This document shows positions 4,973 to 38,534 of a stretch of DNA of 64,000 bases, in pieces; the first letter of the stretch is position 1; the number at the start of each line of letters is the position of its first letter. The notes under the pieces were generated by a model. That model was given only the letters and a program-made list of their open reading frames with translations, made no database searches and was not told the origin of the DNA. A program made the position numbers and the translations under genes. This stretch comes from Dyella sp. BiH032 (lineage in GTDB: Bacteria; Pseudomonadota; Gammaproteobacteria; Xanthomonadales; Rhodanobacteraceae): positions 3,596,001 through 3,660,000 of the forward strand of contig NZ_CP134867.1 of NCBI RefSeq assembly GCF_031954525.1, written 5' to 3'.

Positions 4973-5357
4973 GCGAGCACCCGCCCCTCATCCCGCCTTC
5001 TCCCCGGAGGGGAGAAGGAGAAGTGCGGTACCGCGGCAAGCAGCCAACGACCACACAAGAGCGAGCGAAGCGACGCTCCGAATGCTCTTGATCTCCCGGG
5101 TTCCCTTCGCGGCGGTGAGGGCTGGACGATCAGGCCCGCGAAGCGGGGCGGGGACATGGATGTCCCCGCCTTTTCGATCAGGGCAGGATGCCCTGTCGAA
5201 AAGCCCGGCCAGCCCTCAACGCACCCGCAGCAGCGAAGGCTGCGGAGGGCGCCGCGCAGGGGGGCCTTCTTCTTGGTTACTTCTTCTTGGGCAAGCAAGA
5301 AGAAGTAACTCGCTCTCCGGCAGGAGAGCGAAACCCTCGCCCCGCACGGGGCGAGAC
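4973..5357. repeat. Mosaic hairpin element, full copy A
   Basis: This fills most of the 577-base gap 4879-5455. It is a chain of hairpins: CCTTCTCCCC/GGGGAGAAGG at 4996-5018; GGCGGGGAC/GTCCCCGCC around 5150; a TTTTCGA-GCCCTG stem near 5175-5210; the 14-bp stem GTTACTTCTTCTTG/CAAGAAGAAGTAAC at 5276-5309; CGCTCTCC/GGAGAGCG at 5311-5330; and CTCGCCCC/GGGGCGAG at 5336-5355. It matches copy B (29411-29787) in the same order over nearly its whole length. Reading frames through it are by-products of the repeat. The function is unknown; BIME-like mosaic repeat, structured RNA or non-autonomous mobile element are all possible. Confidence 0.85.
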
Positions 5358-5455
5358 ACGGCTGGCGACCACCTCGCACCGGGTCCCGCCCTACGCCGCA
5401 ATGACGAAACAGACAGCGCGACAGCCAACCGCAACATCAGCGCCAGCGTCCCAAG

Positions 5456-6448
5456 CTACGACGCCAACTCATCGCGCACCGCCGCCACCAACTCATACGA
5501 CCGCCGCCTCAACCCATGCTCAAACACATTCGCCGTCACCATCAACTCATCCGGCCGATGCCGCGCGATAAACGCCGCCAAGCCCTCGCGCACCGAACGT
5601 GAATCCCCCACCACCGAACACGCCAGCGCGCGTTCCACGCCGAACTTCTCCGTCGGCGTCCAATACGTTTCGATATCGTCGATCGGCGGCGGGATCAACC
5701 CTGGCATGCCGCGGCGCAGATTGATGAAGCTCTGCTGCTGCGTGGTGAACAGACGCCGCGCCTCCGCATCGGTTTCCGCCGCCACCACATTGATGCCGAG
5801 CATCGCGTGCGGCTTCGCCAACCGGTCCGAAGGCCGAAAATCGCGGCGGTACAGCGCCAGCGCCTCGTCCATCGCGTCCGGCGCGAAATGCGAGGCGAAG
5901 GCGTACGGCAGGCCCAGCGCGGCGGCAAGACGCGCGCCGAACAGGCTGGAGCCCAGGATCCACACCGGCACGTCGATGCCCGCTCCGGGCACCGCGCGCA
6001 CCGGCTGGCCGGGCTGCGCCGGCTCGAAGTACGCCAGCAGTTCCTGCACGTCTTCCGGAAAGGCGTCCGCGCTCTCGTAGTAACGACGCAGGGCACGCGC
6101 GGTCGGCTGGTCGGTGCCGGGCGCACGGCCCAGGCCGAGATCGATGCGGCCGGGATACAGCGAAGCCAGCGTGCCGAACTGCTCCGCCACCTGCAGTGGC
6201 GCGTGATTGGGCAGCATGATGCCGCCGGCGCCGACGCGGATGGTCGAGGTGCCGCCGGCGATGTGCCCGATCAGCACCGCGGTCGCGGCGCTGGCGATGC
6301 CCGGCATGTTGTGGTGCTCGGCCAGCCAGTAGCGGCGATAGCCCAGGCGTTCGGCCAGGCGGGCCAGGTCGAGACTGTTGGCGAAGGCCTGCGCCGGCGT
6401 GCTGCCCTGGGTCACCGGCGCCAGATCGAGTACGGAAAAGGGAATCAT
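5456..6448 (-). CDS. LLM-class flavin-dependent oxidoreductase (YhbW-like)
   Basis: Bacterial-luciferase-like monooxygenase of 330 residues, predicted to use FMNH2 supplied by a reductase. Family features are clear: SVLDLAPV at the start, [34 protein letters not shown], a [17 protein letters not shown] block, and a late [13 protein letters not shown] block. This order matches the YhbW group. ATG 6448 starts exactly at the conserved N-terminus. It is divergent from the HDOD gene, with about 170 bases between them. The physiological substrate is unknown. Confidence 0.85.
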
Positions 6449-6557
6449 GGAACGTCCTCGCGGCGAAGCTCCCGATCTGGGGGCGGGCACGGCCTTTCCC
6501 ACCCTGGCGCGGATGTGCCGGACGTAGCAGTACGGAACATCGGCACGGCGCCGGGCC

Positions 6558-6584
6558 TACAGTTTTTGCCCGGGTGGCCGATAT
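6558..6584 (+). promoter_or_regulatory. Sigma-28 (FliA) promoter for the HDOD gene
   Basis: TACAGTTT, an 11-base spacer, then GCCGATAT. The known enterobacterial sigma-28 consensus is TAAAGTTT-N11-GCCGATAA, so 14 of 16 bases match with the exact spacing. The -10 box ends 38 bases before the ATG at 6623. Confidence 0.75.
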
Positions 6585-6622
6585 CCCGTCAGGGGAGACC
6601 GCGTCGCGGTCGTGGGGAGAAC

Positions 6623-7660
6623 ATGACGATGTCCTGGCTGAGGCGTTTCTTCGCCCCCGCGCCCGCGCGGCCCATGCCGCGGGCTTCCTTCGAGCGCCCG
6701 GCGCCGCGGCCGTCCGCTCCGCCTGCCGCATCCGCCTCGCCCACCGAGCCATCGCTCGACGTCCTCGCCGAGCGCTTCCAGCGCTTCATGCTCGGCCTGC
6801 CGGACCATCGCGCGGAAGAGAACGCGGGCGAAACCGCCCTGCTGCGCCGGCTGCAGATCGTCGGCGAGCGCTTCGACGTGCGCAGCCTGCCCCGCCTTCC
6901 TGCCGTGCTGCCGCAACTGCTGCATGCGCTCAAGAACGACGACGTGGCCGGCGCCGAACTGGCCCGGCTGGTCGGGCGCGACCCGATGCTGGTGGGCGAA
7001 GTGATGCGGGTGAGCCGCAGCATCTACTACCGCACGCTGCATTCGATCCAGAGCCTGCAGCACGCGGTGGTCCTGCTCGGCCAGGACGGCCTGCGCCGCG
7101 TCGCCACCCAGCACATGATGAAGCCCATCCTGCAGGCCAGCGCCGGCGCGCACGGCCTGGTGGCGGGCCAGCGGCTGTGGGATCACGCGGAACGCTGCGC
7201 GCACGCAAGCGCATTCCTCGGCCGGTTCGCCGGCTGCGATCCGTTCGAGGCCTATCTCGCCGGCATCGTGTGCAATACCGGCACGGGCGCGGTGATCCAC
7301 CTGCTGAGCCTGGAGGACGTCGTCTCGCCGGAAACGCTGAGCCCGATCTTCCTCGATGGCTGCGCCGAACTCGGCGCGCGCCTTACCCTCCGCGCCGCTC
7401 GCCACTGGGAGCTGCCCGGTGCGGTGATCCAGGCGCTGCGGGAACATGCCGGCGAGGATGCGTCCGAAACACCCTCCCCGCTTGGCCGGACACTGCAGGT
7501 CGCGCACGTCCTGTCCATGGCGCAGCTGCTGAGCGACCACCGCGTGATCGATGCCTGCTCCGATCTCAGCCAGGCCTGGCCGGGGCGTTTCGCGCCCACG
7601 CAGATCGCGCGCTGCCAGCAGGACCTGCAGCATCAGTTCGGCGCGGCCACGCGCGCCTGA
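6623..7660 (+). CDS. HDOD-domain signalling protein
   Basis: Cytoplasmic 345-residue protein with an HDOD domain (non-enzymatic relative of HD phosphohydrolases) over about residues 95-300: RLPAVLPQLLHALKNDDVAGAELARLVGRDP, then LLGQDGLRRVATQHMMKP. Residues 15-50 are a Pro/Ala-rich linker. HDOD proteins act in motility, surface and c-di-GMP-linked regulation in xanthomonads. Start ATG 6623 follows GGGGAGA. A near-consensus sigma-28 promoter upstream suggests co-expression with late flagellar genes, which makes a motility role likely. Confidence 0.83.
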   Translation: MTMSWLRRFFAPAPARPMPRASFERPAPRPSAPPAASASPTEPSLDVLAERFQRFMLGLPDHRAEENAGETALLRRLQIVGERFDVRSLPRLPAVLPQLLHALKNDDVAGAELARLVGRDPMLVGEVMRVSRSIYYRTLHSIQSLQHAVVLLGQDGLRRVATQHMMKPILQASAGAHGLVAGQRLWDHAERCAHASAFLGRFAGCDPFEAYLAGIVCNTGTGAVIHLLSLEDVVSPETLSPIFLDGCAELGARLTLRAARHWELPGAVIQALREHAGEDASETPSPLGRTLQVAHVLSMAQLLSDHRVIDACSDLSQAWPGRFAPTQIARCQQDLQHQFGAATRA

Positions 7661-7669
7661 CGGCCGTGG

Positions 7670-7885
7670 TCAATCCGCGGGCGCTTCCGGATGGCGTTCG
7701 AGCCATGCGGCCAGCTCGGCCTTATAGCGGTCCAGCGCTTCCTCGTAGAGATCGTAGACGCAGGGCACGCAGCCTTCGCCGCAGCAGTCGAGGGCATCCG
7801 GCTCGACGGGCTTGAGCGGACGCGGGTCGGCGGGAGACGGTCCGGCGCCTCCCGCGGGCTGGCGGCTGTCGTCCCGATCCGTCAA
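7670..7885 (-). CDS. Small oxidoreductase-like (OXLD1-type) Cys-rich protein
   Basis: Protein of 71 residues with the signature DCCGEGCVPCVYDLYEEALDRY, in which four cysteines lie within nine residues, followed by a helix. This matches the 'oxidoreductase-like, N-terminal' family (also found in eukaryotic OXLD1), whose function is not established; the cysteines may bind metal or be redox active. It starts only four bases after the end of the methyltransferase gene, so the two are very likely co-transcribed. Confidence 0.75.
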   Translation of the reverse strand: MTDRDDSRQPAGGAGPSPADPRPLKPVEPDALDCCGEGCVPCVYDLYEEALDRYKAELAAWLERHPEAPAD

Positions 7886-7889
7886 AGGT

Positions 7890-8660
7890 TCATCCCGGTT
7901 TGCGGAAACGGTACACGAACTGGTCCGAGTGGCCGCGGATGGCCTTGTCGAACACTTTGATGTTGTGCGGATCGGCCGGGTTGCGCAGCAGGTCGCTCTC
8001 GCCGTCGAAGACGAAGCCAGCCGCTTCCACCTGCTTTTTCACGATGGCCGGATCAATGCGATGCAGCGTCTCGGTGTCGCGCATGCCGGAGCCCGCCTCC
8101 GCCACGTGGTCGACGATCACGTACAGGCCGCCCGGCTTGAGCGCGGCGAACACCTGCTTGTTGAGCACCGCCGGATCGATGCTGCCCATGAACTTGTCGG
8201 GATAGTCATGGTAGTTCTGCGAAGTGAACACCACGTCCACTGGCTGCGGCACGCTGAACTGGTTGCTCGGCTGCAGCAGCACGCTGACGTTCTTGTAGTG
8301 CGGCTGCGCTTCCAGCGCCTTGGACGCCTTGAGGTCGGTATCGGCTTCCTGCGCGTACTCGCTGGGCCATACGGCAAAGACATGCCCCTTGGCACCGACG
8401 GCTGCGCTGAATAGGCGGGTGAAATAACCGCCGCCGGGGATCAGGTCGACCACGCGCTGCCCGGTTCCAATCTTCGCGAAGGCCAATAGCTCGCCGCCCT
8501 TGCGGCGCGCGTCGATGGCGGCGTCGGCCTTGCGCGCCGGATCGGCAACCGCGGCGGCGATGTTCGCGGGCATCGCGCCGCCCGGTTTCTGGGGTGGGGC
8601 GGCACCGGCCGCCAGCGGCCATGCGAGAGCGATCAACGCAGCGAGAACGGTCTTAGGCAT
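7890..8660 (-). CDS. Secreted SAM-dependent methyltransferase-like protein
   Basis: Class I methyltransferase fold of 256 residues preceded by a signal peptide (MPKTVLAALIALAWPLAAGA). The SAM-binding loop appears as VVDLIPGGGYFTRLFSAAVG, with acidic and post-loops in FTSQNYHDYP and ALKPGGLYVIVDHVAEAGSG. Export of a SAM-binding fold is odd because SAM is cytoplasmic, yet this exported subfamily is widespread in proteobacteria. The substrate is unknown. The OXLD1-like gene follows at four bases. Confidence 0.8.
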   Translation of the reverse strand: MPKTVLAALIALAWPLAAGAAPPQKPGGAMPANIAAAVADPARKADAAIDARRKGGELLAFAKIGTGQRVVDLIPGGGYFTRLFSAAVGAKGHVFAVWPSEYAQEADTDLKASKALEAQPHYKNVSVLLQPSNQFSVPQPVDVVFTSQNYHDYPDKFMGSIDPAVLNKQVFAALKPGGLYVIVDHVAEAGSGMRDTETLHRIDPAIVKKQVEAAGFVFDGESDLLRNPADPHNIKVFDKAIRGHSDQFVYRFRKPG

Positions 8661-8775
8661 GACGGCACTCCGCGGCAGGTCGGGAGCGGCATTGTGCGCC
8701 CAAACGCGGCTCCGGGAGCCATGACCTTCGGCATTGCGCGATGGAGATAAACGCGATCAGAACAAATACGGCGGC

Positions 8776-9375
8776 TCAACCCGGGAGCCGCCAACTTTGC
8801 AGTGTCGTGTAATCGGCCTGGCCGACGATGCTGTGGATCAGCGCCAGTTGCTCCACGCGCCACGTCACCGGCCCGACCGGCCGCGGCGGCAGCATGTCGC
8901 TGCGGCTGTAGCCGAGCGTGACGTGCGGCGTGAACGTGCGCGACACCTGCCCGCCCTGCCCGGCGCGGATCAGGTGCTCGCGCAACGCCTGCCATAGCTC
9001 GCTCAGCGGCCTCGGCACCTCGTCCGAGCGCAGGACGCATGGCGGCTCGCGGCCGCGGAAGGTGGACAGGTTGTCGAGCGTCCAGTCGAAGGCGTGGGCG
9101 CGCAGCGCATCGCCGGCCTGCCGCGCGGCGCGCGCGATGTCCTCGCGCAGCATCGGATGGTCGCCCAGGAAATGCAGGGTGGCGTGGTAGCGCGACGGTG
9201 CCACCCAGCGCGCGCGGAATCCCGGCGATTCGCGCCTGAGCGCATCGGCGATGCGCGAGAAGGCGTCCCGGGTCGCCTCGTCCGGCATCAGTGCGAAGAA
9301 CAGGCGATGGACCCGCGTCGGCCCGGCGGGGCCGCCGAGGAGATCCAGCTGAGGCGGGTCGAAGACGTTCGGCAT
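8776..9375 (-). CDS. thpR: RNA 2',3'-cyclic phosphodiesterase
   Basis: 2H phosphoesterase of 199 residues (LigT/ThpR family), which opens 2',3'-cyclic phosphates on RNA ends. Both catalytic HxTL motifs are present: HATL at 64-67 and HVTL at 151-154, with the expected spacing of about 85 residues. RLFFALMPDEATR near residue 24 is the usual first strand. It appears to be transcribed alone. Confidence 0.88.
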   Translation of the reverse strand: MPNVFDPPQLDLLGGPAGPTRVHRLFFALMPDEATRDAFSRIADALRRESPGFRARWVAPSRYHATLHFLGDHPMLREDIARAARQAGDALRAHAFDWTLDNLSTFRGREPPCVLRSDEVPRPLSELWQALREHLIRAGQGGQVSRTFTPHVTLGYSRSDMLPPRPVGPVTWRVEQLALIHSIVGQADYTTLQSWRLPG

Positions 9376-9572
9376 CGTGACGGCAGGTTATAGACAAACG
9401 CGAACCTTAGCGCATCGTCGCCGGCAGGGCCCCACATGGCCGTAACAGGAACGCTACGCCACGGTTACCTTGGCCGGCGAACAATGCGATATGCACAGCT
9501 CCGAGTGCGCGGTGGCCAGGGCGACTGCCGCGCGCCGCCCGAGCGTACGCCGGATAACGGCGGGAGGTCGCC

Positions 9573-10070
9573 ATGAAAACCCGTTGCGTCTTCAGCACGC
9601 CGGACCTGCAAGCCGCGCGTGCCGCCATGCGTGCCGCGCTGGATGCAGGCATCGACGACGAGGACATCTGTTTCGTCGCCCGCGACGACATCGAACTGGC
9701 GAAGATTCCCGATCACCGCATGACGGGGCGCACCGACTTCGTCCCTTCCGCCATCCGCGGCGTGGCCTGTGGTGGCGGTGCCGGCCTGCTGCTGGGCCTG
9801 CTTGCCGCGGCGGTGCCGCCGCTGGGTGTGACCCTGGCCGGCGCGGGTGCCGCGGCGGTGGCGGGCGCGGCGGTGGGCGGCTGGACGGGCGCGCTGATCG
9901 GCAGCGAAGTGCCGGACGTGATCCATCGCAAGTTCGGCGGCGAAATCGCCTCCGGCCACATTCTCGTCGTGCTGGACGGCAGCAAGGAACGGCTCGAACT
10001 CGCCGAGCCCGCGGTGGCACGTACCGGTGCCACGCTATTGCCGTTCCACGCCCACACCGCGCTGACGTAA
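9573..10070 (+). CDS. Glycine-zipper membrane-associated stress-like protein, unassigned
   Basis: 165 residues. The N-terminal 45 residues (CVFSTPDLQAARAAMRAALDAGI) look like the soluble domain of general-stress proteins that precede a glycine zipper. Residues 65-110 are Gly/Ala-rich and hydrophobic and could form one hairpin in the membrane. The C-terminal part (HILVVLDGSKERLELAEPAV) is a short alpha/beta segment. A strong GGGAGG ribosome site supports ATG 9573. No specific function can be given. It converges with the bcr-like gene. Confidence 0.65.
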   Translation: MKTRCVFSTPDLQAARAAMRAALDAGIDDEDICFVARDDIELAKIPDHRMTGRTDFVPSAIRGVACGGGAGLLLGLLAAAVPPLGVTLAGAGAAAVAGAAVGGWTGALIGSEVPDVIHRKFGGEIASGHILVVLDGSKERLELAEPAVARTGATLLPFHAHTALT

Positions 10071-10089
10071 CGGCGGGACCGTGCCCCGC

Positions 10090-11298
10090 TCAGTCGGCCG
10101 CCGGCTCCGCGACGCGGTAGCGCCGATGGCGCAGCGTGACCTGCGCGAGCACCAGGGCGATCACCGAGCAGGCGGCGATGCCCGCCAGCATCGGCCGGGC
10201 CGTACCGTCGAGGAAACGCCCGACCACGCCGATCACGCACGCCCCCGTGGCGAACTGGATCGTGCCCAGCAGAGCGGAGGCCGTGCCGGCGATCTTGCCG
10301 TGGTCTTCCAGCGCCAGCACCGCCGAACTGGGCATCACCAGGCCGAGGAAGCCGTAGCCGACGAACAGCAGCGCCATCATCACGCCCAGGTTGTCCACGC
10401 CCGCCACGTTCAGCAGCAGCAGCATCACCATCACCACGCTGTAGCCGACCACGGCGGTGCGCACCAGCCGCGCCAGGCCGTAGCGCGCGCCCAACTTGCC
10501 GGTGAACTGCGCGGCGCCGATGAACGACACGGCATTCACCGAGAACGCCAACCCGTACAGCGTGGGCGACAGGCCATAGTGGTCGATCAGCACGAACGAC
10601 GAATTGGCGAGATAGGCGAAGAAGCTCGCCACGCCGAACGAGCAGATGAAGACCAGCCCCAAGTAATGGCGATCGCGCAGCAGCGTACCGTAGGCGCCCA
10701 GCGCGGTGCGCAGGTTGCTGTCCACGCGCGCCTCGCGCGGCCGCGTCTCCTTCAGCGCGGTCGCCGCCAGCACCAGGCCCAGCACGGCGGCGCCGGCCAC
10801 CGTCCAGAAGATGCCGCGCCAGCTCGCCAGGCGGATCACCAGGCTGCCGGTCAGCGGCGCGAGGATCGGCGACACGCTGAAGACCAGCATCAGCAGCGAC
10901 ATCAGCCGCGCGGCATCGTGGCCCGTATGCATGTCGCGCACGATCGCGCGCGGGATGACCATGCCCGCGCAGGCGCCAAGGCCCTGCACGAAGCGGAAAG
11001 CGATCAACGTGTGGATGTCCGATGCCAGCGCGCAGCCGATGCTGCCCAGCGCGAACACCACCAGTCCGAAGTAGATCGGCGCCTTGCGGCCCAGCATGTC
11101 CGACACCGGGCCGTATACCAGTTGCCCCACGCCCACCGCGGCGAAGAACGCCATCAGGCTCATCTGCGCGGTGTCCACGTCGGTGCCCAGCGCCTCGCGG
11201 ATGGTGGGCAGCGCCGGCAGGTACATGTCGATGGCAAAGGGGCCGATGGCCGACAGCAGGCCCAGAATGAGCGCCGCCCCGAAGAACCGGGAATTCAT
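10090..11298 (-). CDS. bcr: Bcr/CflA-family multidrug MFS exporter
   Basis: Twelve-helix drug:H+ antiporter of 402 residues. The first helix and loop (IDMYLPALPTI), motif A (GPVSDMLGRKAPIYFGL) and motif C region (RFVQGLGACAGMVIPRAIVRDM) are typical of the Bcr/CflA group, which exports bicyclomycin, chloramphenicol and related compounds. ATG 11298 is at the first membrane helix; the longer reading upstream adds 16 residues without support. No regulator is adjacent. Confidence 0.85.
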   Translation of the reverse strand: MNSRFFGAALILGLLSAIGPFAIDMYLPALPTIREALGTDVDTAQMSLMAFFAAVGVGQLVYGPVSDMLGRKAPIYFGLVVFALGSIGCALASDIHTLIAFRFVQGLGACAGMVIPRAIVRDMHTGHDAARLMSLLMLVFSVSPILAPLTGSLVIRLASWRGIFWTVAGAAVLGLVLAATALKETRPREARVDSNLRTALGAYGTLLRDRHYLGLVFICSFGVASFFAYLANSSFVLIDHYGLSPTLYGLAFSVNAVSFIGAAQFTGKLGARYGLARLVRTAVVGYSVVMVMLLLLNVAGVDNLGVMMALLFVGYGFLGLVMPSSAVLALEDHGKIAGTASALLGTIQFATGACVIGVVGRFLDGTARPMLAGIAACSVIALVLAQVTLRHRRYRVAEPAAD

Positions 11299-11502
11299 GC
11301 GTCTGTTTCCTTGAAATCGAAAAGCGAGGAAGCCGGCGCGCAGCATCGGCGCCAGGCCCGTCCGTTCATCGCAGCGCGATGGCGAGGATGCCGGAGAAAG
11401 GACGAATTATTGAACCAACCAGTCTTGAAATACAAGCGCGGCGTTTGACGCGAGGTCGCGCCGCATTGCACGGCGCGACCGGTGCACTTTAGCGGAAGGC
11501 GC

Positions 11503-12916: not shown

Positions 12917-12925
12917 CCCGGCCCT

Positions 12926-29158: not shown

Positions 29159-29360
29159 CCCCCCTCATCCCACCTTCTCTCCCACGGAGACTACCTTCGG
29201 GCCGCCCGGAGGGGAGAAGGAGAAGTGCGGTAACGCGGCAAGCAACCAACGACCAAACCAGAGCGAGCGAAGCGACGCTCCGCCATGCTCTTGATCTTCC
29301 GGATTCCCTTCGCGGCGGTGAGGGCTGGACGATCAGGCCGCGAAAGGTGGGCAGGGACAG
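29159..29360. repeat. Mosaic hairpin element, 5' half (copy B')
   Basis: Contains the first modules only: the CTTCTC/GGGGAGAAGG hairpin region (here interrupted by about 30 extra bases), AGAGCGAGCGAAGCGACGCT, then CCCTTCGCGGCGGTGAGGGC and the start of the GGACGATCAGG module. It breaks off at about 29360, before the GTTACTT hairpin. It lies directly upstream of full copy B, giving a partial tandem. Confidence 0.8.
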
Positions 29361-29410
29361 GCGCTCGCCATTGCTGTGATGCATCGGCGCGGCTTCGTTG
29401 CAACGCTTTC

Positions 29411-29787
29411 GCGAGCACCCGCCCCTCATCCCGCCTTCTCCCCGGAGGGGAGAAGGAGAAGTGAATACCGAGGCAAGCAAAAACAAGAGCGAGCGAAGCG
29501 ACGCTCCGTCGTGCTCTTGATCTCCCGGGTTCCCTTCGCGGCGGTGAGGGCTGGACGATCAGGCCGCCAAAGGCGGGCGGGGACAGGACGTCCCCGCCTT
29601 TTCGATTCGGGCATGGATGCCCGATCGAAAAGCCCGGCCAGCCCTCAACGCACCCGGAGCAGCGCAGGCTGCGGAGGGCGCCGCGCAGGGGGCCCTTCTT
29701 CTTGGTTACTTCTTCTTGGGCAAGCAAGAAGAAGTAACTCGCTCTCCGGCAGGAGAGCGAAATCCCTCGCCCCGCGAGGGGCGAGAC
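29411..29787. repeat. Mosaic hairpin element, full copy B
   Basis: Same order of modules as copy A at 4973-5357, including the 14-bp GTTACTTCTTCTTG stem at 29705-29738, CGCTCTCC/GGAGAGCG at 29740-29759 and CTCGCCCC/GGGGCGAG at 29766-29785. Together with copy B' it occupies most of the 973-base gap 29126-30098. The rest of that gap (29788-30098) has a GGGTCCCGGCCCACGCCGGA module also seen near 5386, a CCCTCTCCC/GGGAGAGGG hairpin near 30060, and nothing else I can name. Confidence 0.85.
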
Positions 29788-30098
29788 CAGACTAGCGACC
29801 ACGCTGCGACAATCGAGCGATATTCCTATTGGGTCCCGGCCCACGCCGGAATGACGAGGATGGGAGGACGAGGCGACCCTTCGCGCCCGTTGAGGTTTGC
29901 GGGCTACCCCAACCTACGCCACTGCGCGCTACGCACTCCGTCCGGCCCACGCCAGATAACCGCAATGAAAGAGTGCGAAGAAAAAACGCCCGCCAGCGAT
30001 AACGAACCTGCCTCGCAGCACAACCGCTCCCCACCAAACCCAACCACCCAAACAAACACCCCTCTCCCCACAGGGAGAGGGATGCCCACACACCCTCC

Positions 30099-31436: not shown

Positions 31437-31757
31437 GATCTGCTCCCTGTCATGTGAACCCCCTGGGCACGGGCCTTGCGCCCGAGCCTCCGTTTGTCCG
31501 GATGCAGCGGCCCCGGACCGGCCTCGTGCCGATCGCTCGCCGGCGACCTGCGTCGCCAGGAAACCTGGGCTGGGAGATGGTGTGGACGTGCCCCCTGTGG
31601 CGCCCCCCTGGCGCGGCGGCGGTAAGGTCGCGCCGGGCACGTGGAGGCGGCGTGATGCCGCCGCGCGGGCGAATCGCAGCATCTGCGAACGGACAGCGCT
31701 AGCCTGAAGGGGCTCGTGAAGGGCGCGTACCACCCAATCACCGAAGGGGGAAACGTC
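31437..31757. other. Intergenic region between divergent genes
   Basis: 321 bases separating the heme protein (minus) and a small secreted protein (plus). It must contain both promoters, but I find no convincing -35/-10 pair, repeat or small gene. Open frames here are GC-rich by-products. Confidence 0.4.
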
Positions 31758-32207
31758 ATGAATCGATCCAACCCGCCTCGCCGGCGGCGCATCCTGTCCG
31801 GCCTCCTGCTTGCGCTCGCGCTGCCCGCGGCCAGTCATGCCGCACAGCAGGCCTCCGGCCTGGGCCAGGCCTGGCCGAACGCGCCGGACCTCGGCGCCAG
31901 CCCGCGCTGGCACGTCTACGCGTTCGAGCGCGACGGCGTGCGCTTCGTGCAGATCAACGATGCAGCGGGCCGCGTGCTCGGCGCGTTCGCCACGGCCGGC
32001 GGGCAATTTCTCGTGCTGCCCATGGGCACTGGCGCCACGCTCACGGTCGACGCAGGCGCCGCGCCGGCCACCGGCGAGACGGTCTACCGCGACGGCAACG
32101 TACAGGTAACGGCCACCCCGTCGGCGGACGGCACTCCGCGATTCCGCGCGGCCAGTGCGCCATGCACCGACCCGGTGGAATGCAGCACGCATGTGACGTC
32201 GCCCTGA
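31758..32207 (+). CDS. Small secreted hypothetical protein
   Basis: 149 residues with a signal peptide (RRRRILSGLLLALALPAASHA). The mature part is beta-rich (WHVYAFERDGVRFVQINDAAGRVLGAF) and ends with two cysteines (APCTDPVECSTHV) that could pair. No family recognised. GAAGGGGGAAA before ATG 31758 is a plausible ribosome site. Confidence 0.65.
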   Translation: MNRSNPPRRRRILSGLLLALALPAASHAAQQASGLGQAWPNAPDLGASPRWHVYAFERDGVRFVQINDAAGRVLGAFATAGGQFLVLPMGTGATLTVDAGAAPATGETVYRDGNVQVTATPSADGTPRFRAASAPCTDPVECSTHVTSP

Positions 32208-32359
32208 CGCCGGACCGCTGACTCCGAACCACTCATTCATGCCCGGCGGCGCCATCGCCGTCGGCATTCACGGCCGCCTCACGCCTTCATCGGCATATGT
32301 CCCGCGCCCGGCGCGGGGAGCGCCGGTGCGTGCGGCTGGCTCTTCCGGGGAGGACGTCG

Positions 32360-33961
32360 ATGCGCAAGCTGGTGGCCCTGCTGTGCTTCTGCCTGCTGGC
32401 ATGCGTGCTGGCCGCGCCGGCGACCGCGCAGAATCCGCCCGGCGCGCTGCGCGCGATTCCCACCGCGGACGGCTACCGGCTCAACGCCTACGTGGCCATC
32501 CCCGCCGGCAACGGCCCCTTCCCGCTCGTGGTCATGCCCTCCAGTTGGGGTCTCGGGCTGGCCGAATACGTCGGCATCGCCAACCGGCTCGCCGGTCGCG
32601 GCTATGTCGTGGTGAGCTATGCCTCGCGCGGCTTCGGTGCCGGCTGCGCGTTGTCGGCGTCCTGCGGCGCCATCGACATCGCCGGGCCGGCGACGATTGC
32701 CGATGTCAGTACGGTGATCGACTGGGCGCTGGCCAACACGCCGTCGGACGCAGGCGCGATCGGCATCTCCGGCATCTCCTACGGCGCGGGCAGCAGCTTG
32801 CTGGCGGCGGAACGCGATCCGCGCATCAAGGCCGTCGCCGCGCTCAGCGGATGGGCCAGCCTCGTCGATTCGCTCTACGCCAACCGCACGCCGAGCGCGC
32901 AGGGCGTGGCCCTGCTGTCCTTCGCGAGCTATCTCGGCAAGCCGGGCCCGCTGATGCAGCAGGTCAACCAGCGCGTGGCCGCGCTCGATTTCCTCGGCGC
33001 GGTGCAGGCGGTACTGCCGGATGCCGACGTACGCAGCCCCGCCGCCGGCGTGGACGCGCTCAACCGCCACGGCGCCGCCGTGCTGCTGGCCAATGCTTAT
33101 GAGGACAGCCTGTTCGTGCCCGGCCAGCTGGTCGACTTCTACAACCGCCTTACCGTGCCGAAGCGTTTAGTGTTCGCGCACGGCGACCACGCCACCAACG
33201 AAATGTTCGGTGCGCTGGGGCTTCCCAACGAGGTCTACGATGCGGTGGACGACTGGTTCGACCGTTACCTCAAAGGCGTGGACAACGGCGTCGATCGCCA
33301 ACCGCCCGTGCAGCTGAAGACACAGGGCGGCCGCTGGCTCGCGTTCGCCGACTGGAGCGCTGCGCAGGCGAATGCGACGACCTATGCACTGGGCGATCCG
33401 CGCTTCGATCTCTTCGCCAACCCGACCACGACTGGCCGTCTTTCCACGGGTAGCGCCAGCACATGGAACTACGCCATCACCGGCGGCTATCCCACCGCCG
33501 CCTATTCGGGCCTGATCTTCGTCAGCGGCATCCTCACCGCCTGGCAGGCGCCGCCGGTCGCTTCCCTGCCGCTGGTATCGCGCGCCAACGCAGCGGTGTG
33601 GAGCAGCGCGCCGCTGGCCCGTGACGCGACCGTCGCAGGCATGCCTTCCCTGCACATCACCGTGACGCCCGATACGGCGCAGCTCTCGCTCTACGCCTAC
33701 CTCTACAGCGTCGACGCTTTCGGCGTGGGCCAGCTGATGAGCTGGAAGCCCTACACCTTCGCCGATGCCGTGCCCGGCGTGCCGCGCACTATCGACCTGC
33801 GTCTGGAAGCGACCGGCTGGGACGTTCCCGCGGGCCACCGGCTGGCGCTGGTCGTGGGCACGGTCGACCTCCGCTATGCGGGCGTCACGCCACCAGGCAG
33901 CCGCGCAGTGTTCAGCTCGCCGGTCTACTCGCCGTCCACCTTGAGCGTGCCGCTGCACTGA
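32360..33961 (+). CDS. Secreted CocE/NonD-type S15 alpha/beta hydrolase
   Basis: 533-residue exported hydrolase. A signal peptide (to about 24) is followed by an alpha/beta-hydrolase domain with the nucleophile elbow GISYGAG (Ser within GxSxG near residue 138), and a C-terminal jelly-roll domain (LHITVTPDTAQLSLYAYLYSVD, DLRLEATGWDVPAGHRLALVVG) as in X-Pro dipeptidyl-peptidase/cocaine-esterase relatives. Substrate unknown; likely an ester or peptide in the periplasm. A strong terminator follows. Confidence 0.83.
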   Translation: MRKLVALLCFCLLACVLAAPATAQNPPGALRAIPTADGYRLNAYVAIPAGNGPFPLVVMPSSWGLGLAEYVGIANRLAGRGYVVVSYASRGFGAGCALSASCGAIDIAGPATIADVSTVIDWALANTPSDAGAIGISGISYGAGSSLLAAERDPRIKAVAALSGWASLVDSLYANRTPSAQGVALLSFASYLGKPGPLMQQVNQRVAALDFLGAVQAVLPDADVRSPAAGVDALNRHGAAVLLANAYEDSLFVPGQLVDFYNRLTVPKRLVFAHGDHATNEMFGALGLPNEVYDAVDDWFDRYLKGVDNGVDRQPPVQLKTQGGRWLAFADWSAAQANATTYALGDPRFDLFANPTTTGRLSTGSASTWNYAITGGYPTAAYSGLIFVSGILTAWQAPPVASLPLVSRANAAVWSSAPLARDATVAGMPSLHITVTPDTAQLSLYAYLYSVDAFGVGQLMSWKPYTFADAVPGVPRTIDLRLEATGWDVPAGHRLALVVGTVDLRYAGVTPPGSRAVFSSPVYSPSTLSVPLH

Positions 33962-34001
33962 TCCTCGTACCTCGCGCCTCCACCCCTGTAGGCGCTCTTT
34001 C

Positions 34002-34039
34002 CCGCGTCCGCCGCCACACCGACGGACGCGGTTTTTTTT
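34002..34039 (+). terminator. Rho-independent terminator
   Basis: CCGCGTCCG (34002-34010) and CGGACGCGG (34023-34031) form a perfect 9-bp stem with a 12-base loop, followed directly by eight T (34032-34039). Textbook terminator for the hydrolase gene. Confidence 0.9.
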
Positions 34040-34046
34040 GCCCGCG

Positions 34047-35333
34047 CTAGGTCCGCTCCGGCGAAGGTCCGGACATCTCCGGCGCGAGCGAAATGCTGAA
34101 GCGCAGGCGGCCGTCTTCCACAAACATGCGCAATTGGCGGTAGCGCACCAGATAGCGGATGCCTACCGCGGCCGCCGCGATGCCGGACAGCGCGCCCAGC
34201 CCCAGCGACCACCGCGGCCCCAGCGTGTCGGCCACCCAGCCCACCAGCGGCGCGCCGATCGGCGTGCCGCCGAGCGCGATGGCGAACTGGATGGCGATCA
34301 CGCGTCCGCGCATCGCCGGGTCCGTGGAAAGCTGCACCAGGCTATTGGTGGACGTGGTGTACATCTGCGCCGCCATACCCACCGCCACCAGCATCACGCC
34401 GAACCAGACGTAGGTGGCCATCGATGCAGCGAACACGCAGCCGACGCCGAACCCCAGCGCCGCGCCGATGAGATAGCCCAGCCGCGGCCTCGCCTGCTGT
34501 GCGGCAAACAGCGCGCCGGCCACGGAGCCGGCGGCCATCAGCGAGGTGAGCAGGCCGTACTGGTCGGCCTCGCCGTGAAAGGCCTTCACCACCATCGCCG
34601 AGATGAAGATCGGGAAGTTCAGGCCGAAGGTGCCGATCAGGAACAACATCAGCAGCACGGCGCGCAGGTCGCGCCGCTGCCAGACGTAGCGGAAGCCCTC
34701 CATCAGCGCGCCGGGCCGCCGCTCCGGGCGCAGGCGCGGATGCAGCTCGCGCGGGCGCAGCATGCACAGCGAGACCAGCACCGCCACGTAAGACAAGGCA
34801 TTCAACAGGAACACCCAGCCGGAACTCATCGTGGCCAGCATCGCGCCGGCCACCGCCGGGCCGATCATGCGCGCGGCGTTGAACGAGGTGGAATTGAGCG
34901 CCACCGCGTTGGAGAGGTCTTCCTCGCCCGCCAGTTCCGACACGAAGGTCTGCCGCGCCGGCGCGTCGAATGCCGCCACCGCGCCGAGCAGGCCGGCGAA
35001 CACGTATACGTGCCACAGCTTCACCCAGCCGGCGAGCGTGAGCAGGCCCAGGCCCAGCGCCAGCGCGCCAATCAACCCTTGCGTGGCGAACAGCAGCTTG
35101 CGGCGGTCGAAGTGGTCCGCCGCATAGCCTGTCAACGGCAGCAGCACCAGCTGCGGGCCGAACTGCAGCGCCATGACAATGCCCACCGCGGTGGCGTTCT
35201 TTTCGGTGAGCTCGGTGAGCACCAGCCAGTCCTGCGCGGTGCGCTGCATCCAGGTGCCGACGTTGGAGACAAGCCCGCCCGCCGCCCACACGCGGTAGTT
35301 GTAATTGCGCAGCGAGCGGAACGCGCCTAGCAC
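34047..35333 (-). CDS. MFS exporter, EntS/MFS_3-like
   Basis: 428-residue major-facilitator transporter of the MFS_3 group (as in EntS). Typical segments are SNVGTWMQRTAQDWLVLTEL in helix 1, GYAADHFDRRKLLFATQ (motif A) and AFDAPARQTFVSELAGEEDL. The start is GTG 35333, because no in-frame ATG is near. It follows the isochorismatase-fold gene by 31 bases and belongs to the MarR-led minus-strand operon, so it probably exports a toxic or aromatic compound. Confidence 0.8.
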   Translation of the reverse strand: MLGAFRSLRNYNYRVWAAGGLVSNVGTWMQRTAQDWLVLTELTEKNATAVGIVMALQFGPQLVLLPLTGYAADHFDRRKLLFATQGLIGALALGLGLLTLAGWVKLWHVYVFAGLLGAVAAFDAPARQTFVSELAGEEDLSNAVALNSTSFNAARMIGPAVAGAMLATMSSGWVFLLNALSYVAVLVSLCMLRPRELHPRLRPERRPGALMEGFRYVWQRRDLRAVLLMLFLIGTFGLNFPIFISAMVVKAFHGEADQYGLLTSLMAAGSVAGALFAAQQARPRLGYLIGAALGFGVGCVFAASMATYVWFGVMLVAVGMAAQMYTTSTNSLVQLSTDPAMRGRVIAIQFAIALGGTPIGAPLVGWVADTLGPRWSLGLGALSGIAAAAVGIRYLVRYRQLRMFVEDGRLRFSISLAPEMSGPSPERT

Positions 35334-35364
35334 CGGCGCGCGCCCGCGGAGACAGCGGCATGGC

Positions 35365-35922
35365 TCATGCGCGCGCGTCGAGCCGTTCGACGATCTCGCG
35401 CACCGTGCCGATCTCGCCCAGGCGCGGGAAGATGCGCGTCACGCTGTTGTCGTGCGCATCGGCATTCGAGTCGGTCATCGCATCGACGGCCAGCGTCACA
35501 TTGAAACCGCCCTCGTAAGCTTGTCTCGCCGTGGATTCCACGCCGATGCTGGTCGACACGCCGCCGATCACCACCTGGGTGACGCCCTGCGCGCGCAGGT
35601 ATTCGGCGAGGTCCGTATTCACGAAGGCGCCCCAGCTGCGCTTGCTCACGCGATGATCGCCCGGCTGTGCGTCGAGTTGCGGCATCAGCTCGGCCCAGTC
35701 CGCCGGCCGCTCGCCGGCGGGGCGCTGCTGCACGCGGCCCGGCGCGCCGCCGAGTACGTTCACCAGCACCACCGGCAGCCGATGGCGGCGGAACGCGCCG
35801 GCCAGTTCGCCGGCGTGCTTCAGCACGTCGTCCACCGAGTGTGCAGTCTTCTGGCTGACGATGCCTTTCTGCATGTCGATGAGGATGAGAGCGGTCTTCT
35901 CGTCGATCGCGGTGATGCTCAT
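35365..35922 (-). CDS. Isochorismatase-fold hydrolase lacking the catalytic Cys
   Basis: 185-residue isochorismatase-superfamily protein. Asp16 (LIDMQ) and Lys94 (VSKRSWGAF) of the usual triad are present, and so is the cis-peptide segment (VIGGVSTS), but the nucleophilic Cys of GVxTxxCV is Gly127 (GVSTSIGV). True isochorismatases such as EntB and PhzD also have Gly here, whereas nicotinamidase-type amidases need Cys. It is therefore unlikely to be an amidase. Second gene of the marR operon. Confidence 0.82.
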   Translation of the reverse strand: MSITAIDEKTALILIDMQKGIVSQKTAHSVDDVLKHAGELAGAFRRHRLPVVLVNVLGGAPGRVQQRPAGERPADWAELMPQLDAQPGDHRVSKRSWGAFVNTDLAEYLRAQGVTQVVIGGVSTSIGVESTARQAYEGGFNVTLAVDAMTDSNADAHDNSVTRIFPRLGEIGTVREIVERLDARA

Positions 35923-35987
35923 GGCTGACTCCGTTGCGGGGGACGTAACGGCGCGCCGCGCGGGCGCGCGGGGGGAGAAGGAAGCGG

Positions 35988-36455
35988 TCAGGGTACGCCG
36001 GGTTCCGTCGACGCATCGAGCAGGCGGCGTAGCAATGGCATCGCGGCGGCCAGCTGCGCCTGCTCGCGCTCGTCGAGCTGTTCGCGCAGCACGCGGTCCA
36101 GCCAGTCCTCACGCGCCGCGCGGCTGGCGCGCACCAGTTCCATGCAGGCGGGGGTGAGCGTCCATAGCGTCTGCCTGCGGTCGGCCGGGTCCGGAGCGCC
36201 GGCCAACAGGCCCAGCGTTTCGAGCGAGGCGACCGTCGCGCCCATCGATTGCGGACGCACGCCTTCGGCATGCGCGAGCGCAGTGACGGTGGACGCGCCT
36301 TGCCGCTCGAGCTGGATCAGCACGGACGTCTGCGCCGAGGAGAGCTGGTCGGTGCGGCCCTGCTTGCGCAGGCGTCGCGCGAGTTTGCCGAGCACCACGC
36401 GCATTTCCACGGCGAGGGCATGGGTGGCGTCGGTCCGGGAGGGCGAGGCGGGCAT
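35988..36455 (-). CDS. MarR-family repressor
   Basis: 155-residue MarR regulator: LSSAQTSVLIQLERQG, the recognition region ALAHAEGVRPQSMGATVASLETLGL and the wing DPADRRQTLWTLTP are clear. ATG 36455 begins just before the first helix; the longer reading upstream crosses the promoter region. It leads an operon with an isochorismatase-fold protein and an MFS exporter, and is divergent from GST and DUF899 genes, an arrangement typical for resistance to electrophiles or phenolic compounds. Confidence 0.85.
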   Translation of the reverse strand: MPASPSRTDATHALAVEMRVVLGKLARRLRKQGRTDQLSSAQTSVLIQLERQGASTVTALAHAEGVRPQSMGATVASLETLGLLAGAPDPADRRQTLWTLTPACMELVRASRAAREDWLDRVLREQLDEREQAQLAAAMPLLRRLLDASTEPGVP

Positions 36456-36487
36456 GGGGCGGCATCGTAGAGAAAAGGAAGGAAAAC

Positions 36488-36506
36488 TGCAAAGGAAAAC
36501 TTTGCA
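36488..36506. promoter_or_regulatory. Candidate MarR operator, TGCAAAG-N5-CTTTGCA
   Basis: Perfect 7-bp inverted repeat with a 5-base spacer between the divergent marR and gst genes. Its right arm contains TTTGCA, a possible -35 box with TAAAAC 17 bases on, so binding would block the gst promoter. Confidence 0.7.
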
Positions 36507-36646
36507 TCTCGATAGAGTGTCGGTAAAACAGGGCCTTAGCCACGCAGACAGCGGCGCTTTGTTTACTGACGAGATCCACTGGACGGTTTGTCGATCCGCC
36601 ATCCCGCCATTCGTCGCCTTGGTGAACCCACCCACCCGGAATCCCC

Positions 36647-37306
36647 ATGGCCTTGCAGCTGTACGCCCATCCCTTCTCGTCCTACAGCCAGAAAGTGCTG
36701 GTCGCGCTTTACGAAAACGGCACGCCGTTCGAATGGCGCGTGCTTTCGCCGGACCAGCCCGACGCTATCCGGGCCTGGCTGGGCATGTGGCCGGTCAAGC
36801 GCTTTCCCGTACTGGTCGACGACGGACGCATGGTCGCGGAGGCCAGCACCATCATCGAGTACCTGGGCCTTCACCATCCCGGCCCGGTGCGCCTGTTGCC
36901 CGACGACCCGCGCGAAGCGCTGGAAGTGCGCGCGATGGACCGCTTCTTCGACAACTACATTTCCACGCCGCAGCAGAAAGTGGTGTTCGATGCGATCCGC
37001 CCGGAAGGCACGCGCGATGCGTATGGCGTCAAGGAGGCGCGCGAGATGCTCGAGGCTGCGTATGGCTGGCTCGACCAGACCATGGCCGACCGCGAATGGG
37101 CGGCCGGCGCACGCTTCTCCCTCGCCGACTGCGGCGCCGCGCCGTTCCTGTTCTACGCGGATTGGACGCATCCGATCGATCCGGCATTCGCCAATGTCAT
37201 CGCTTACCGCAAACGCCTGCTGGCCCGCCCGTCCTTCGCACGCGCGGTGAACGAGGCGCGCCCCTACCGCCCCTTGTTCCCGCTCGGCGCTCCCGACCGC
37301 GACTGA
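36647..37306 (+). CDS. Glutathione S-transferase
   Basis: 219-residue cytosolic GST. The thioredoxin-like N-terminal domain (LYAHPFSSYSQKVLVALYENG with Ser residues near the usual catalytic site; FPVLVDDG with the cis-Pro; VAEASTIIEYL binding the gamma-glutamyl part) is followed by an all-helical domain ending in FSLADCGAAPFLFYADW (N-capping box Ser-x-x-Asp). It probably conjugates electrophiles. Divergent from marR; DUF899 follows after 29 bases. Confidence 0.87.
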   Translation: MALQLYAHPFSSYSQKVLVALYENGTPFEWRVLSPDQPDAIRAWLGMWPVKRFPVLVDDGRMVAEASTIIEYLGLHHPGPVRLLPDDPREALEVRAMDRFFDNYISTPQQKVVFDAIRPEGTRDAYGVKEAREMLEAAYGWLDQTMADREWAAGARFSLADCGAAPFLFYADWTHPIDPAFANVIAYRKRLLARPSFARAVNEARPYRPLFPLGAPDRD

Positions 37307-37335
37307 TTCTTCCCACCTGTGCAGGAGAAATCACG

Positions 37336-38040
37336 ATGAGTTCCACGCCCCTGATTCCCGCGGCCGAACTGGCCGCACGCGCCGGCGTCGCCAACGCCGG
37401 CGAAAGCGCCGAATACCGCAAGGCGCGCACTGCGCTGCTGGCCGAGGAGATCGAGCTGCGCCGGCACATCGAACGCGTGGCCGAACTTCGCCGCGCCCTG
37501 CCGCCGGGCCATGCGATCACCGGCGATTACCGCTTCGAAGGCGAACACGGCCCGATCGACTTCGCCGCCCTGTTCGGCGACAAGCAGACCCTGGTCGTCT
37601 ATGGCTACATGTTCGGCGCCAAGCGCGAACGCCCCTGCCCCATGTGCACCTCGCTGCTCGGCGCCTGGAACGGCGAGGCGCGCGACATCCAGCAACGCGT
37701 GGCGCTGGCCGTGGTCGCCGGCGCGCCGCAGGAACGCCTGCAAGCCTTCAAGCGCGAACGCGGCTGGCGCGACCTGCCGCTCTACACCGACCTCAACGGC
37801 AACTACACGCGCGACTTCCGCGGCATCACCCCCGACGGCAGCGACATGCCCTCGCTCAACGTGTTCACCCGCCGCGACGGAACGATCCGCCACTTCTGGG
37901 GCGAGGAAATGACCATGGCCACCGCCGACCCCGGCCAAGACCCGCGCGGCGCTCCCGACCCCATGCCGATCTGGACACTGCTCGATATGACGCCCGAGGG
38001 ACGTGGGACGGATTGGTATCCGAAGTTGCAGTACGACTGA
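37336..38040 (+). CDS. DUF899 thioredoxin-like protein
   Basis: 234-residue DUF899 protein with a thioredoxin-like core: YRFEGEHGPIDFAALFGDKQTLVVYGYMFG, then CPMCTSLLGAWNG with a Cys pair like a redox CxxC, and DLNGNYTRDFRGITPDGSDMPSLNVFTRRDG. The N-terminal ~60 residues form a charged helix (EIELRRHIERVAELRRALPPG). Function is unproven, but a redox role in the GST operon is plausible. AGGAG lies nine bases before the ATG. Confidence 0.82.
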   Translation: MSSTPLIPAAELAARAGVANAGESAEYRKARTALLAEEIELRRHIERVAELRRALPPGHAITGDYRFEGEHGPIDFAALFGDKQTLVVYGYMFGAKRERPCPMCTSLLGAWNGEARDIQQRVALAVVAGAPQERLQAFKRERGWRDLPLYTDLNGNYTRDFRGITPDGSDMPSLNVFTRRDGTIRHFWGEEMTMATADPGQDPRGAPDPMPIWTLLDMTPEGRGTDWYPKLQYD

Positions 38041-38127
38041 GGTGTGGGAGCGCGCGAGCGCGTTGCTTTGTGATTGGAGGCAGCGGCGTCAGGCCACTGC
38101 AGCAAGCGAGAGACGACAAGGTTTCGC

Positions 38128-38397
38128 TCCGTAGGTCCCCTCACCCCGCCCTCTCCCCGGCGGGGAGAGGGAGAAGTGCGGTGCTATCGCCAGAACACCA
38201 AGAGCCGACGCTACGCTCCCCGTCCTCTCCGCCTTGGCGCCTCGACGTCCCCTCCACGCACCTCAGTTCCTCTTCGAGTCGCGCGACTGAGCAAAGTGAG
38301 AAACCATTGCGTGCTCTGCCATCCCCGCCGCGAGCCTTTGACTTCAGGCCATTTCTCTTTGGTTACTTTCTCTTTGGGCCAGCAAAGAGAAAGTAAC
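38128..38397. repeat. Mosaic hairpin element, variant copy C
   Basis: Diverged relative of copies A and B in the 546-base gap 38041-38586. It starts with a CCTCTCCCC/GGGGAGAGG hairpin near 38148-38171 and ends with the 15-bp stem GTTACTTTCTCTTTG (38362-38376) / CAAAGAGAAAGTAAC (38383-38397). The middle differs. The stem keeps the outer GTTACTT/AAGTAAC but has a different, fully compensated inner arm. Confidence 0.75.
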
Positions 38398-38406
38398 TCG
38401 GGCGCC

Positions 38407-38446
38407 GGCAGGCGTCCGACATGCCCGCTGCATAAGCGGCCAGATC
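38407..38446. repeat. 40-bp direct repeat, unit 1
   Basis: A 40-base unit starting GGCAGGCGTCCGACATGCCC and ending GGCCAGATC, repeated at 38495-38534 with two mismatches. It contains a small CCGCT/AGCGG hairpin. It lies just past the variant C hairpin. Confidence 0.75.
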
Positions 38447-38494
38447 GCGGAACCGTAACTTAGTGCGAACCACCAAGAACCAACCTCACAAACA

Positions 38495-38534
38495 GGCAGG
38501 CACCCGACATGCCCGCTGCATAAGCGGCCAGATC
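38495..38534. repeat. 40-bp direct repeat, unit 2
   Basis: Second unit, 38 of 40 bases identical to 38407-38446, spaced 88 bases start to start. The stretch from here to 38586 is AC-rich without other structure. Confidence 0.75.

What the first reader, a model, noticed from the sequence alone, without database searches (positions are those of the whole stretch)
4973..38534. Dispersed mosaic element made of consecutive hairpins, with compensated stem changes
Complete copies at 4973-5357 and 29411-29787 share the same order of at least six hairpins over ~385 bases. A 5' half precedes copy B (29159-29360), a variant lies at 38128-38397, an inverted fragment at 57533-57592 and a lone hairpin at 1972-2000. 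The main hairpin always keeps outer GTTACTT/AAGTAAC, but the inner arm differs (TTTTTCTG, TTCTTCTTG, TTCTCTTTG) and in every case the opposite arm changes to match. Paired changes mean the structure, not just the sequence, is kept. The module shuffling resembles BIME/REP mosaics, but the length and hairpin number are unusual; a structured RNA or a mobile non-autonomous unit is possible.
Basis: partly seen in the sequence, partly recalled or inferred. Interest (0 to 1): 0.75.

Follow-up and report, generated by a model that had tools for sequence, protein, structure and literature searches.

The report
Scattered RNA element with triple helix
The window holds copies of a repeat scattered about a hundred times over this bacterium's chromosome and found in many other bacteria; its sequence changes follow the rules of a folded RNA that ends in a knotted triple helix, and in species that have the RNA-binding protein CsrA it usually carries that protein's kind of docking hairpin.

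Summary
I count 105 long copies of the ~385-base element in the stretches held of this genome, 3 overlapping called genes. It is not a RAYT-type REP: no Y1 transposase here, and none of 30 Y1 loci in other bearers adjoins a copy. Matches occur in 52 of 99 genomes (own included), the 3' module in 73 of 398 of the phylum (own included). The core is related to Rfam's TwoAYGGAY, already proposed in print to bind CsrA. My test: upstream GGA hairpins in 20 of 29 genomes with CsrA, 0 of 21 without (kinship confounds). Copies are absent at 3 of 3 orthologous gaps and often form head-to-head pairs; here their strand follows GC skew. Best reading: a non-autonomous mobile element encoding a structured, CsrA-binding RNA with a 3' triplex pseudoknot. 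Transcription, CsrA binding and the mobilising enzyme are not shown.

The parts
4960..5406 (+). copy A, approximate full extent including shared 5' edge and variable 3' tail
29401..29857 (+). copy B, approximate full extent (core 29411-29787)
29159..29360 (+). 5' half copy in front of copy B
   Evidence: 29205-29359 is 92% identical to copy A positions 31-184
38128..38440 (+). variant subfamily: same 5' hairpin and 3' pseudoknot hairpin (loop GGCCAG), different middle
   Evidence: loop GGCCAG in 15 of 227 hairpins
57531..57587 (-). 5' hairpin module alone, inverted
   Evidence: 96% identical over 57 bases
1951..2005 (+). degenerate lone 3' hairpin
   Evidence: R1 score 27 bits, E 9e-6
5098..5267 (+). 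P0 closing helix (5098-5114 with 5250-5267) around the core, from the single-sequence fold; inner pairs kept in relatives, several middle pairs not
5116..5218 (+). long-range helix P1 GTGAGGGCTGG / CCAGCCCTCA(A)C
   Evidence: 83.1% of cells paired, 6 of 11 pairs with changes on both sides
5147..5170 (+). hairpin with loop ATGGAT closed by C-G (CsrA/RsmA-type loop)
   Evidence: 97.8% of cells paired, 7 of 8 pairs doubly changed; detector
5171..5202 (+). second hairpin, loop AGGAT, on a CTTTTCG/CGAAAAG stem
   Evidence: 92.3% of cells paired
5224..5249 (+). third hairpin; in some relatives its loop also carries GGA
   Evidence: three outer pairs kept in 28 of 28
5262..5265 (+). place of the pseudoknot 5' strand (partner of loop 5290-5293); only 2 of 4 pairs in copy A, 3 of 4 in copy B (29691-29694), 4 of 4 in the variant (38347-38350)
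   Evidence: register; sequence
5267..5274 (+). third strand TTCTTCTT, parallel to purine strand 5297-5304 AAGAAGAA: 8 of 8 by the triplex code
5276..5309 (+). S2 hairpin GTTACTTCTTCTTG / CAAGAAGAAGTAAC, loop GGCAAG
5310..5355 (+). two further hairpins, 5310-5331 (well kept) and 5336-5355 (poorly kept)

Best explanation
It is a non-autonomous mobile element whose sense strand encodes a structured RNA of about 275-400 nt. The RNA has (1) a closed multi-helix core that in CsrA-bearing hosts usually presents one to three hairpins with GGA loops, and (2) a 3' H-type pseudoknot whose loop-1 strand lies in the major groove of the GTTACTT hairpin as a triple helix of 7-10 U.A-U / C+.G-C layers. SHOWN by sequence: copy number, spread over families of the phylum, helix covariation, pseudoknot covariation, triplex-code covariation, absence at orthologous gaps, head-to-head pairs, no GGA hairpin found where CsrA is absent. 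INFERRED: that it is transcribed; that CsrA/RsmA dimers bind the GGA hairpins, so the RNA either titrates CsrA or is stabilised or controlled by it; that the triplex pseudoknot shields the RNA 3' end or is the handle for the enzyme that copies the element. The mobilising enzyme is not identified. The bias of the sense strand toward the C-rich (lagging) side in this genome suggests insertion coupled to replication.
For: Triplex: 40 unique third-strand/purine-strand pairs match the parallel code in 299 of 322 cells; permutation mean 228.8, sd 6.8, max 256 in 2000. Over all distinct contexts the fit is 0.967 in register and at most 0.519 when shifted; antiparallel Watson-Crick reaches 0.688 (that script stopped with an error during its last control, after these lines). 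Where triplex and Watson-Crick/direct-repeat predictions differ: 93 vs 1, 7 neither. Pseudoknot: 90 of 117 exact at the predicted place, null mean 34.2, max 49; loop-1 length equals stem length minus 4 in 88 of 91. In 28 clean stems from 29 other genomes: 14 with 4 of 4 standard pairs vs null mean 3.4, max 9, with new pairs TCGC/GCGA, TGTG/CACA, TTGC/GCAA, TCGG/CTGA (see in Tried and rejected). Core: 90.5% of cells paired, covariation score 0.467 vs 0.153 shuffled. Sense-strand wobble: 117 G.T vs 65 A.C over 80 pairs. CsrA: 20 of 29 vs 0 of 21 genomes, 2% in mononucleotide shuffles (with 55 and 62). TwoAYGGAY hits beside the hairpin. Mobility: 3 of 3 orthologous gaps with both flanks aligned are empty; the 40 scored copies here are 88-97% identical to copy A, listed matches in the same genus 76-86%; close neighbours stand in the order (-,+) in 27 of 28 and 18 of 18 cases, sets that overlap; strand versus GC skew Fisher 1.1e-5.
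Against: No transcription data were available, and no sigma-70-like promoter was found in or beside copies A and B. The CsrA correlation is confounded by kinship (8 of the 11 unnamed CsrA-less genomes are of one family), MAG gaps can hide csrA, and 9 of 29 CsrA-bearing genomes show no GGA hairpin: six carry a different core, two were read over only 11 and 105 bases, one (L115) was read in full. In copy A itself only 2 of 4 pseudoknot pairs form. Strand bias was significant only in this genome: G304 p 0.11, G483 p 0.10, G025 p 0.23 with another pattern, G043 p 1.0. No target-site duplication or mobilising gene was found.
Confidence: 0.6

Rival explanations
1. DNA-level element: the fold acts as single-stranded DNA (like REPIN, IS200/IS605 ends or attC) and is recognised by a transposase or recombinase during replication; RNA is irrelevant.
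For: Replication-strand bias in this genome, inverted pairs, no preference for gene strand (22 same, 27 opposite in tandem sites, counted), no promoter-like site; triplexes and pseudoknots can form in ssDNA.
Against: GGA hairpins were found only in hosts with the RNA-binding protein CsrA; relation to an Rfam RNA family; no Y1 transposase match in 14 of 36 bearers and no 3' module beside 30 Y1 loci.
Confidence: 0.23
2. Fixed multi-copy regulatory RNA family (a CsrA sponge network) kept by selection on the host, not a mobile element.
For: Strong covariation; CsrA correlation; published proposal that TwoAYGGAY binds CsrA.
Against: About 100 copies in G000 and in G304, empty orthologous gaps, copies more alike within the genome than within the genus, no shared neighbour family beyond 4 of 110 proteins, a class without GGA loops but with the same 3' module.
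Confidence: 0.09
3. Gene-end element: bidirectional terminators or mRNA 3' stabilisers at the ends of genes, spread like REPs.
For: 44 convergent, 49 tandem, 10 divergent sites; 3 of 105 overlap called genes. Terminator-like consensus sites are in excess: 4 in copy A's region vs 0.5 in shuffles, 5 around copy B vs 1.0; most have interrupted T tails.
Against: No preference for gene strand in tandem sites; avoidance of promoters alone can explain the siting; it does not explain the pseudoknot, the triplex or the GGA loops.
Confidence: 0.08

Closest known systems
TwoAYGGAY RNA motif (Rfam RF01731, clan CL00106)
   Same: Core with two hairpins with AYGGAY/AGGAY loops on a multiloop; the Rfam model hits relatives' copies right beside the GTTACTT hairpin.
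   Different: The window's own copies do not reach the gathering score. The Rfam hits end before the 3' pseudoknot/triplex. The 2010 survey's table rates it probably an RNA and probably not cis-regulatory (one passage of PMC2864571). Copies of the second class have the 3' module without such loops.
CsrA/RsmA-binding sRNAs (CsrB/C, RsmX/Y/Z; RsmU in Xanthomonas)
   Same: Several hairpins with GGA loops in one RNA; a CsrA role for TwoAYGGAY was proposed in PMC4333381 (passages). RsmU was seen only in a listing.
   Different: Those are one or a few loci per genome (recalled); this is dispersed at up to ~100 copies and has a pseudoknotted 3' end.
REP / BIME / REPIN (RAYT-mobilised)
   Same: Intergenic, high copy number, inverted doublets as a unit (PMC3116915, passages).
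   Different: Hundreds of bases rather than tens, no Y1 transposase in this genome, selection on a single-strand fold with a triplex.
Pseudoknots with major-groove triplexes (telomerase RNA, SAM-II and preQ1-II riboswitches; ENE elements of MALAT1/PAN)
   Same: Loop-1 pyrimidines in the major groove of stem 2 (recalled; only a preQ1 review was seen, in a listing).
   Different: Here 7-10 layers with mixed C+.G-C and U.A-U that covary across families, in a dispersed repeat.
MITEs
   Same: Non-autonomous, intergenic, inverted-repeat-like head-to-head pairs in relatives.
   Different: No target-site duplication or parent transposase found.

Membership tests
TwoAYGGAY (RF01731) | reaches the curated gathering score | tested here: not met
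   no hit in the window; relatives' copies L133 (two), L074 and L083 (one of two) do reach it, L267 and L292 fall short
TwoAYGGAY (RF01731) | two hairpins with AYGGAY-like loops within a closing helix | tested here: met
   the second loop is AGGAT, one base shorter
CsrA/RsmA-binding RNA | hairpin loops A(N)GGA(N) closed by C-G | tested here: met
   copy A: ATGGAT on 11 pairs, AGGAT on 6 pairs
CsrA/RsmA-binding RNA | measured binding of CsrA | not testable with these tools
   needs gel shift or CLIP
CsrA/RsmA-binding RNA | feature missing where the host lacks CsrA | tested here: met
   0 of 21 CsrA-less vs 20 of 29 with CsrA; not corrected for kinship
REP/REPIN | a RAYT (Y1_Tnp) in the genome or beside the repeats | tested here: not met
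REP/REPIN | doublets as inverted repeats | tested here: met
   27 of 28 and 18 of 18 neighbours <2.5 kb in the order (-,+) in other genomes
MITE | absent at orthologous sites | tested here: met
   3 of 3 comparisons with both flanks aligned, at two sites
MITE | target-site duplication and parent transposase | tested here: inconclusive
   relatives too diverged for exact junctions; no transposase among the 25 commonest of 132 neighbour families, the rest not shown
protein-coding gene | a reading frame kept open in relatives | tested here: not met
   3 of 29 sequences have no open frame in any of six

The most novel reading that the evidence does not exclude
A class of bacterial mobile element defined by an RNA: its conserved handle is a 3' pseudoknot with a long triple helix, found from Proteobacteria to (in MAGs) Bacteroidota and Spirochaetes. 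It spreads by a replication-coupled, possibly RNA-templated route with an unknown enzyme, and wears host-specific domains, CsrA-binding hairpins in most hosts with CsrA and a different core where CsrA is missing.
Probability: 0.3. Interest if true: 0.93.

Novelty: new variant of a known kind. Interest (0 to 1): 0.82.

Why it matters
An orphan RNA motif first listed in 2010 (TwoAYGGAY) gains a 3' half, a genomic behaviour and a natural experiment for the CsrA proposal. The triplex covaries so cleanly that it offers a ready test system for RNA triple helices in bacteria. If the RNA is made, a genome with some 100 CsrA-binding copies has a hidden buffer on a global regulator. If the fold serves mobility, it points to an unknown route of spread.

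Tried and rejected
RAYT/REP origin: rejected. Protein-coding origin: 3 of 29 sequences have no open frame at all. Linked transposase or other gene: 110 neighbour proteins of named loci gave ordinary chromosomal families among the 25 commonest of 132, the commonest (EAL) in 4. Gene-oriented cis element: 22 same-strand vs 27 opposite in tandem sites. Loop-1 as an alternative Watson-Crick arm or direct repeat: 0.688 at best vs 0.967, 1 vs 93 cells. RNAalifold on the core alignment found only the two GGA hairpins and three outer pairs; the long-range helix was set by hand and counted. Strand bias elsewhere: trend in two genomes of family f17 (G304, with 68 of 101 matches listed; G483, 12 of 16 typed in), not in G025 or G043; it assumes that records start at the origin. 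Plasmids: only part of the 5' hairpin (42 bases) matches one Azospirillum record. Literature in the held library: REP/hairpin terms, sequence strings, REPIN/lagging strand, triplex/pseudoknot repeats and CsrA/repeat terms listed no paper that I recognised as describing this element (listings only); TwoAYGGAY itself is named in 7 papers, 5 listed.

A first test of the pseudoknot in the further genomes let stems run into flanking wobble pairs, lost the register and scored 1 of 27 exact and 125 of 240 triplex cells; with closing pairs required to be Watson-Crick and the model's register it gave 14 of 28 exact and 191 of 223 (triplex null mean 165, max 181). By eye several of the remaining misses there are still shifted by a base.
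Full report
WHAT IS THERE. The two complete copies, the half copy, the variant and the inverted fragment are as described. The window lies in a 5.25 Mb genome. Two genomes of its family have contigs of the same lengths as Dyella silvae and D. amyloliquefaciens records, so it is probably one of the Rhodanobacteraceae (inference; taxonomy). In that genome 40 scored places (of 216 candidates) match copy A nearly full length at 88-97%. There are 79 hairpins GTTACTT-N6-30-AAGTAAC and 113 matches to a core 19-mer, both with zero reversed-control matches. In the stretches I held, 147 hits include 105 that cover more than 200 positions and 24 that cover only the 5' hairpin; these are lower bounds, since about 100 of the 113 places were listed.

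WHERE IT SITS. By my own codon-score gene calls, of 103 copies with both neighbours 44 lie between convergent genes, 49 in tandem and 10 between divergent genes; 3 of 105 overlap a called gene. Orientation does not follow the genes (22 same strand, 27 opposite in tandem sites). It follows GC skew: 31 minus / 11 plus at 1.0-2.9 Mb, where skew is positive, and 11 minus / 32 plus at 2.9-4.6 Mb, where it is mostly negative, Fisher 1.1e-5. It is 10/10 elsewhere, where skew is near zero (skew computed without the elements, from the fetched stretches only). So here the sense strand lies mostly on the C-rich, lagging side. Four other single-contig genomes gave p 0.11, 0.10, 0.23 and 1.0, so this is not yet general. 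No sigma-70-like promoter was found at copies A and B; terminator-like sites are in excess, 4 against 0.5 and 5 against 1.0.

MOBILITY. At copy B's gap two relatives of the genus have about 180 and 70 bases between the same genes and no element; at the variant's gap one relative has about 65 bases and none. Two more relatives aligned on one side only and showed no element. Copies are more alike within the genome than to listed matches in the same genus, 76-86%. In other genomes, copies within 2.5 kb of each other stand head to head, order (-,+), in 27 of 28 cases (at least one place, L043/L106, is probably held twice) and 18 of 18 (partly the same places). No Y1 transposase is present here, 14 of 36 bearers have no match, and 0 of 30 Y1 loci hold the 3' module within 1.5 kb.

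THE FOLD. Single-strand RNA folding of 5083-5357 gives -171 kcal/mol, z -9.1. On 28 relatives' sequences, three helices of the core pair in 90.5% of 896 cells with 150 doubly changed cells (shuffled 46.9; slid versions at most 57), including a long-range helix GTGAGG..GG / CC..CCTCAC. That helix is the weakest, 83.1%. Non-standard pairs favour G.T over A.C 117 to 65, so the sense strand is the folded one.

THE 3' MODULE. The hairpin is part of an H-type pseudoknot: bases TGNC upstream pair with the loop GNCA. The variable pair is C-G 25, U-A 14, G-C 8, neither 2 among 49 sequences. 90 of 117 unique copies have the exact partner at the predicted place, against at most 49 in 2000 permutations. 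The strand between pseudoknot and hairpin is stem length minus 4 in 88 of 91. That strand covaries with the hairpin's purine strand, read in parallel: C over G in 56 of 58, T over A in 240 of 258 cells; G over T in 3 of 6 agrees with the G.T-A triplet (recalled). Permutations average 228.8 with maximum 256, against 299 observed. Cells that discriminate triplex from ordinary pairing or direct repeat: 93 to 1, with 7 neither. The geometry fits a major-groove triplex: loop 1 runs from the top to the base of stem 2, parallel to its 3' strand (inference). In 28 clean stems from 29 other genomes (two of the same family) the pseudoknot is complete in 14 (null mean 3.4, max 9), with new complementary pairs (see the failed first version).

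SPREAD. Copy A matches 52 of 99 genomes, own included, in 29 of 51 genera. The model of the 3' module hits 73 of 398 genomes of the phylum, own included.

LINK TO KNOWN RNA AND TO CsrA. Rfam has nothing at threshold in the window, but TwoAYGGAY hits relatives' copies just 5' of the hairpin. A published motif analysis proposed that TwoAYGGAY sequesters CsrA (PMC4333381, passages read); the original survey lists it as a probable RNA (PMC2864571, one passage). My test: one copy from each of 50 genomes with a CsrA search (all 20 and 30 of the 48, those with a locus). A hairpin with loop A(N)GGA(N), closed by C-G on at least 4 pairs, lies within ~305 bases upstream in 20 of 29 with CsrA and 0 of 21 without; mononucleotide shuffles give 2%. 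Four copies had truncated upstream sequence (11, 105, 111 and 67 bases). The second class carries hairpins of the type TTTGAGC..GCGAGTT instead (seen by eye) and also occurs in some CsrA-bearing genomes. Kinship confounds the test: 8 of the 11 unnamed CsrA-less genomes are one family. Salinisphaera, a gammaproteobacterium without a CsrA match and without GGA hairpins, is a point outside it.

VERDICT. A mobile, non-autonomous repeat whose conserved substance is a folded RNA with a 3' triplex pseudoknot, usually with a CsrA-type core in hosts that have CsrA. Fold: shown by covariation. Mobility: well supported. CsrA binding: likely, not shown. Enzyme, transcription and benefit: unknown.

Noticed in passing
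57531-57587 and 4973-5040: The 5' hairpin module (CCCCTCAT...CTCCCCGGAGGGGAGAAGG) also occurs alone, 24 of 147 hits in the held stretches, and one Azospirillum plasmid holds a 42-base, 95% match: a separate repeat that joins mosaics.
   Followed up: partly
5358-5406 and 29788-29857: The 3' tail ends in a hairpin of the type CCGGCCTACGCCGGAATGACGA that also follows copies in other genera; probably another repeat fused to the element.
   Followed up: partly
38407-38452 and 38495-38540: A 46-base stretch with a GCCCGCTGCATAAGCGGCC palindrome is repeated twice (91%) behind the variant copy.
   Followed up: no
L277, L282, L287, L288, L295 (genomes without a CsrA match): A second core class without GGA loops but with the same 3' pseudoknot; several carry TTTGAGC...GCGAGTT-like hairpins. 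What it binds is unknown.
   Followed up: partly
G000:C2:173478-173645: A second, divergent CsrA-like match (25.8 bits, below cut-off) on another contig of this genome.
   Followed up: no
62505-62537: A 33-base, 85% partial match to the element's 5' region.
   Followed up: no
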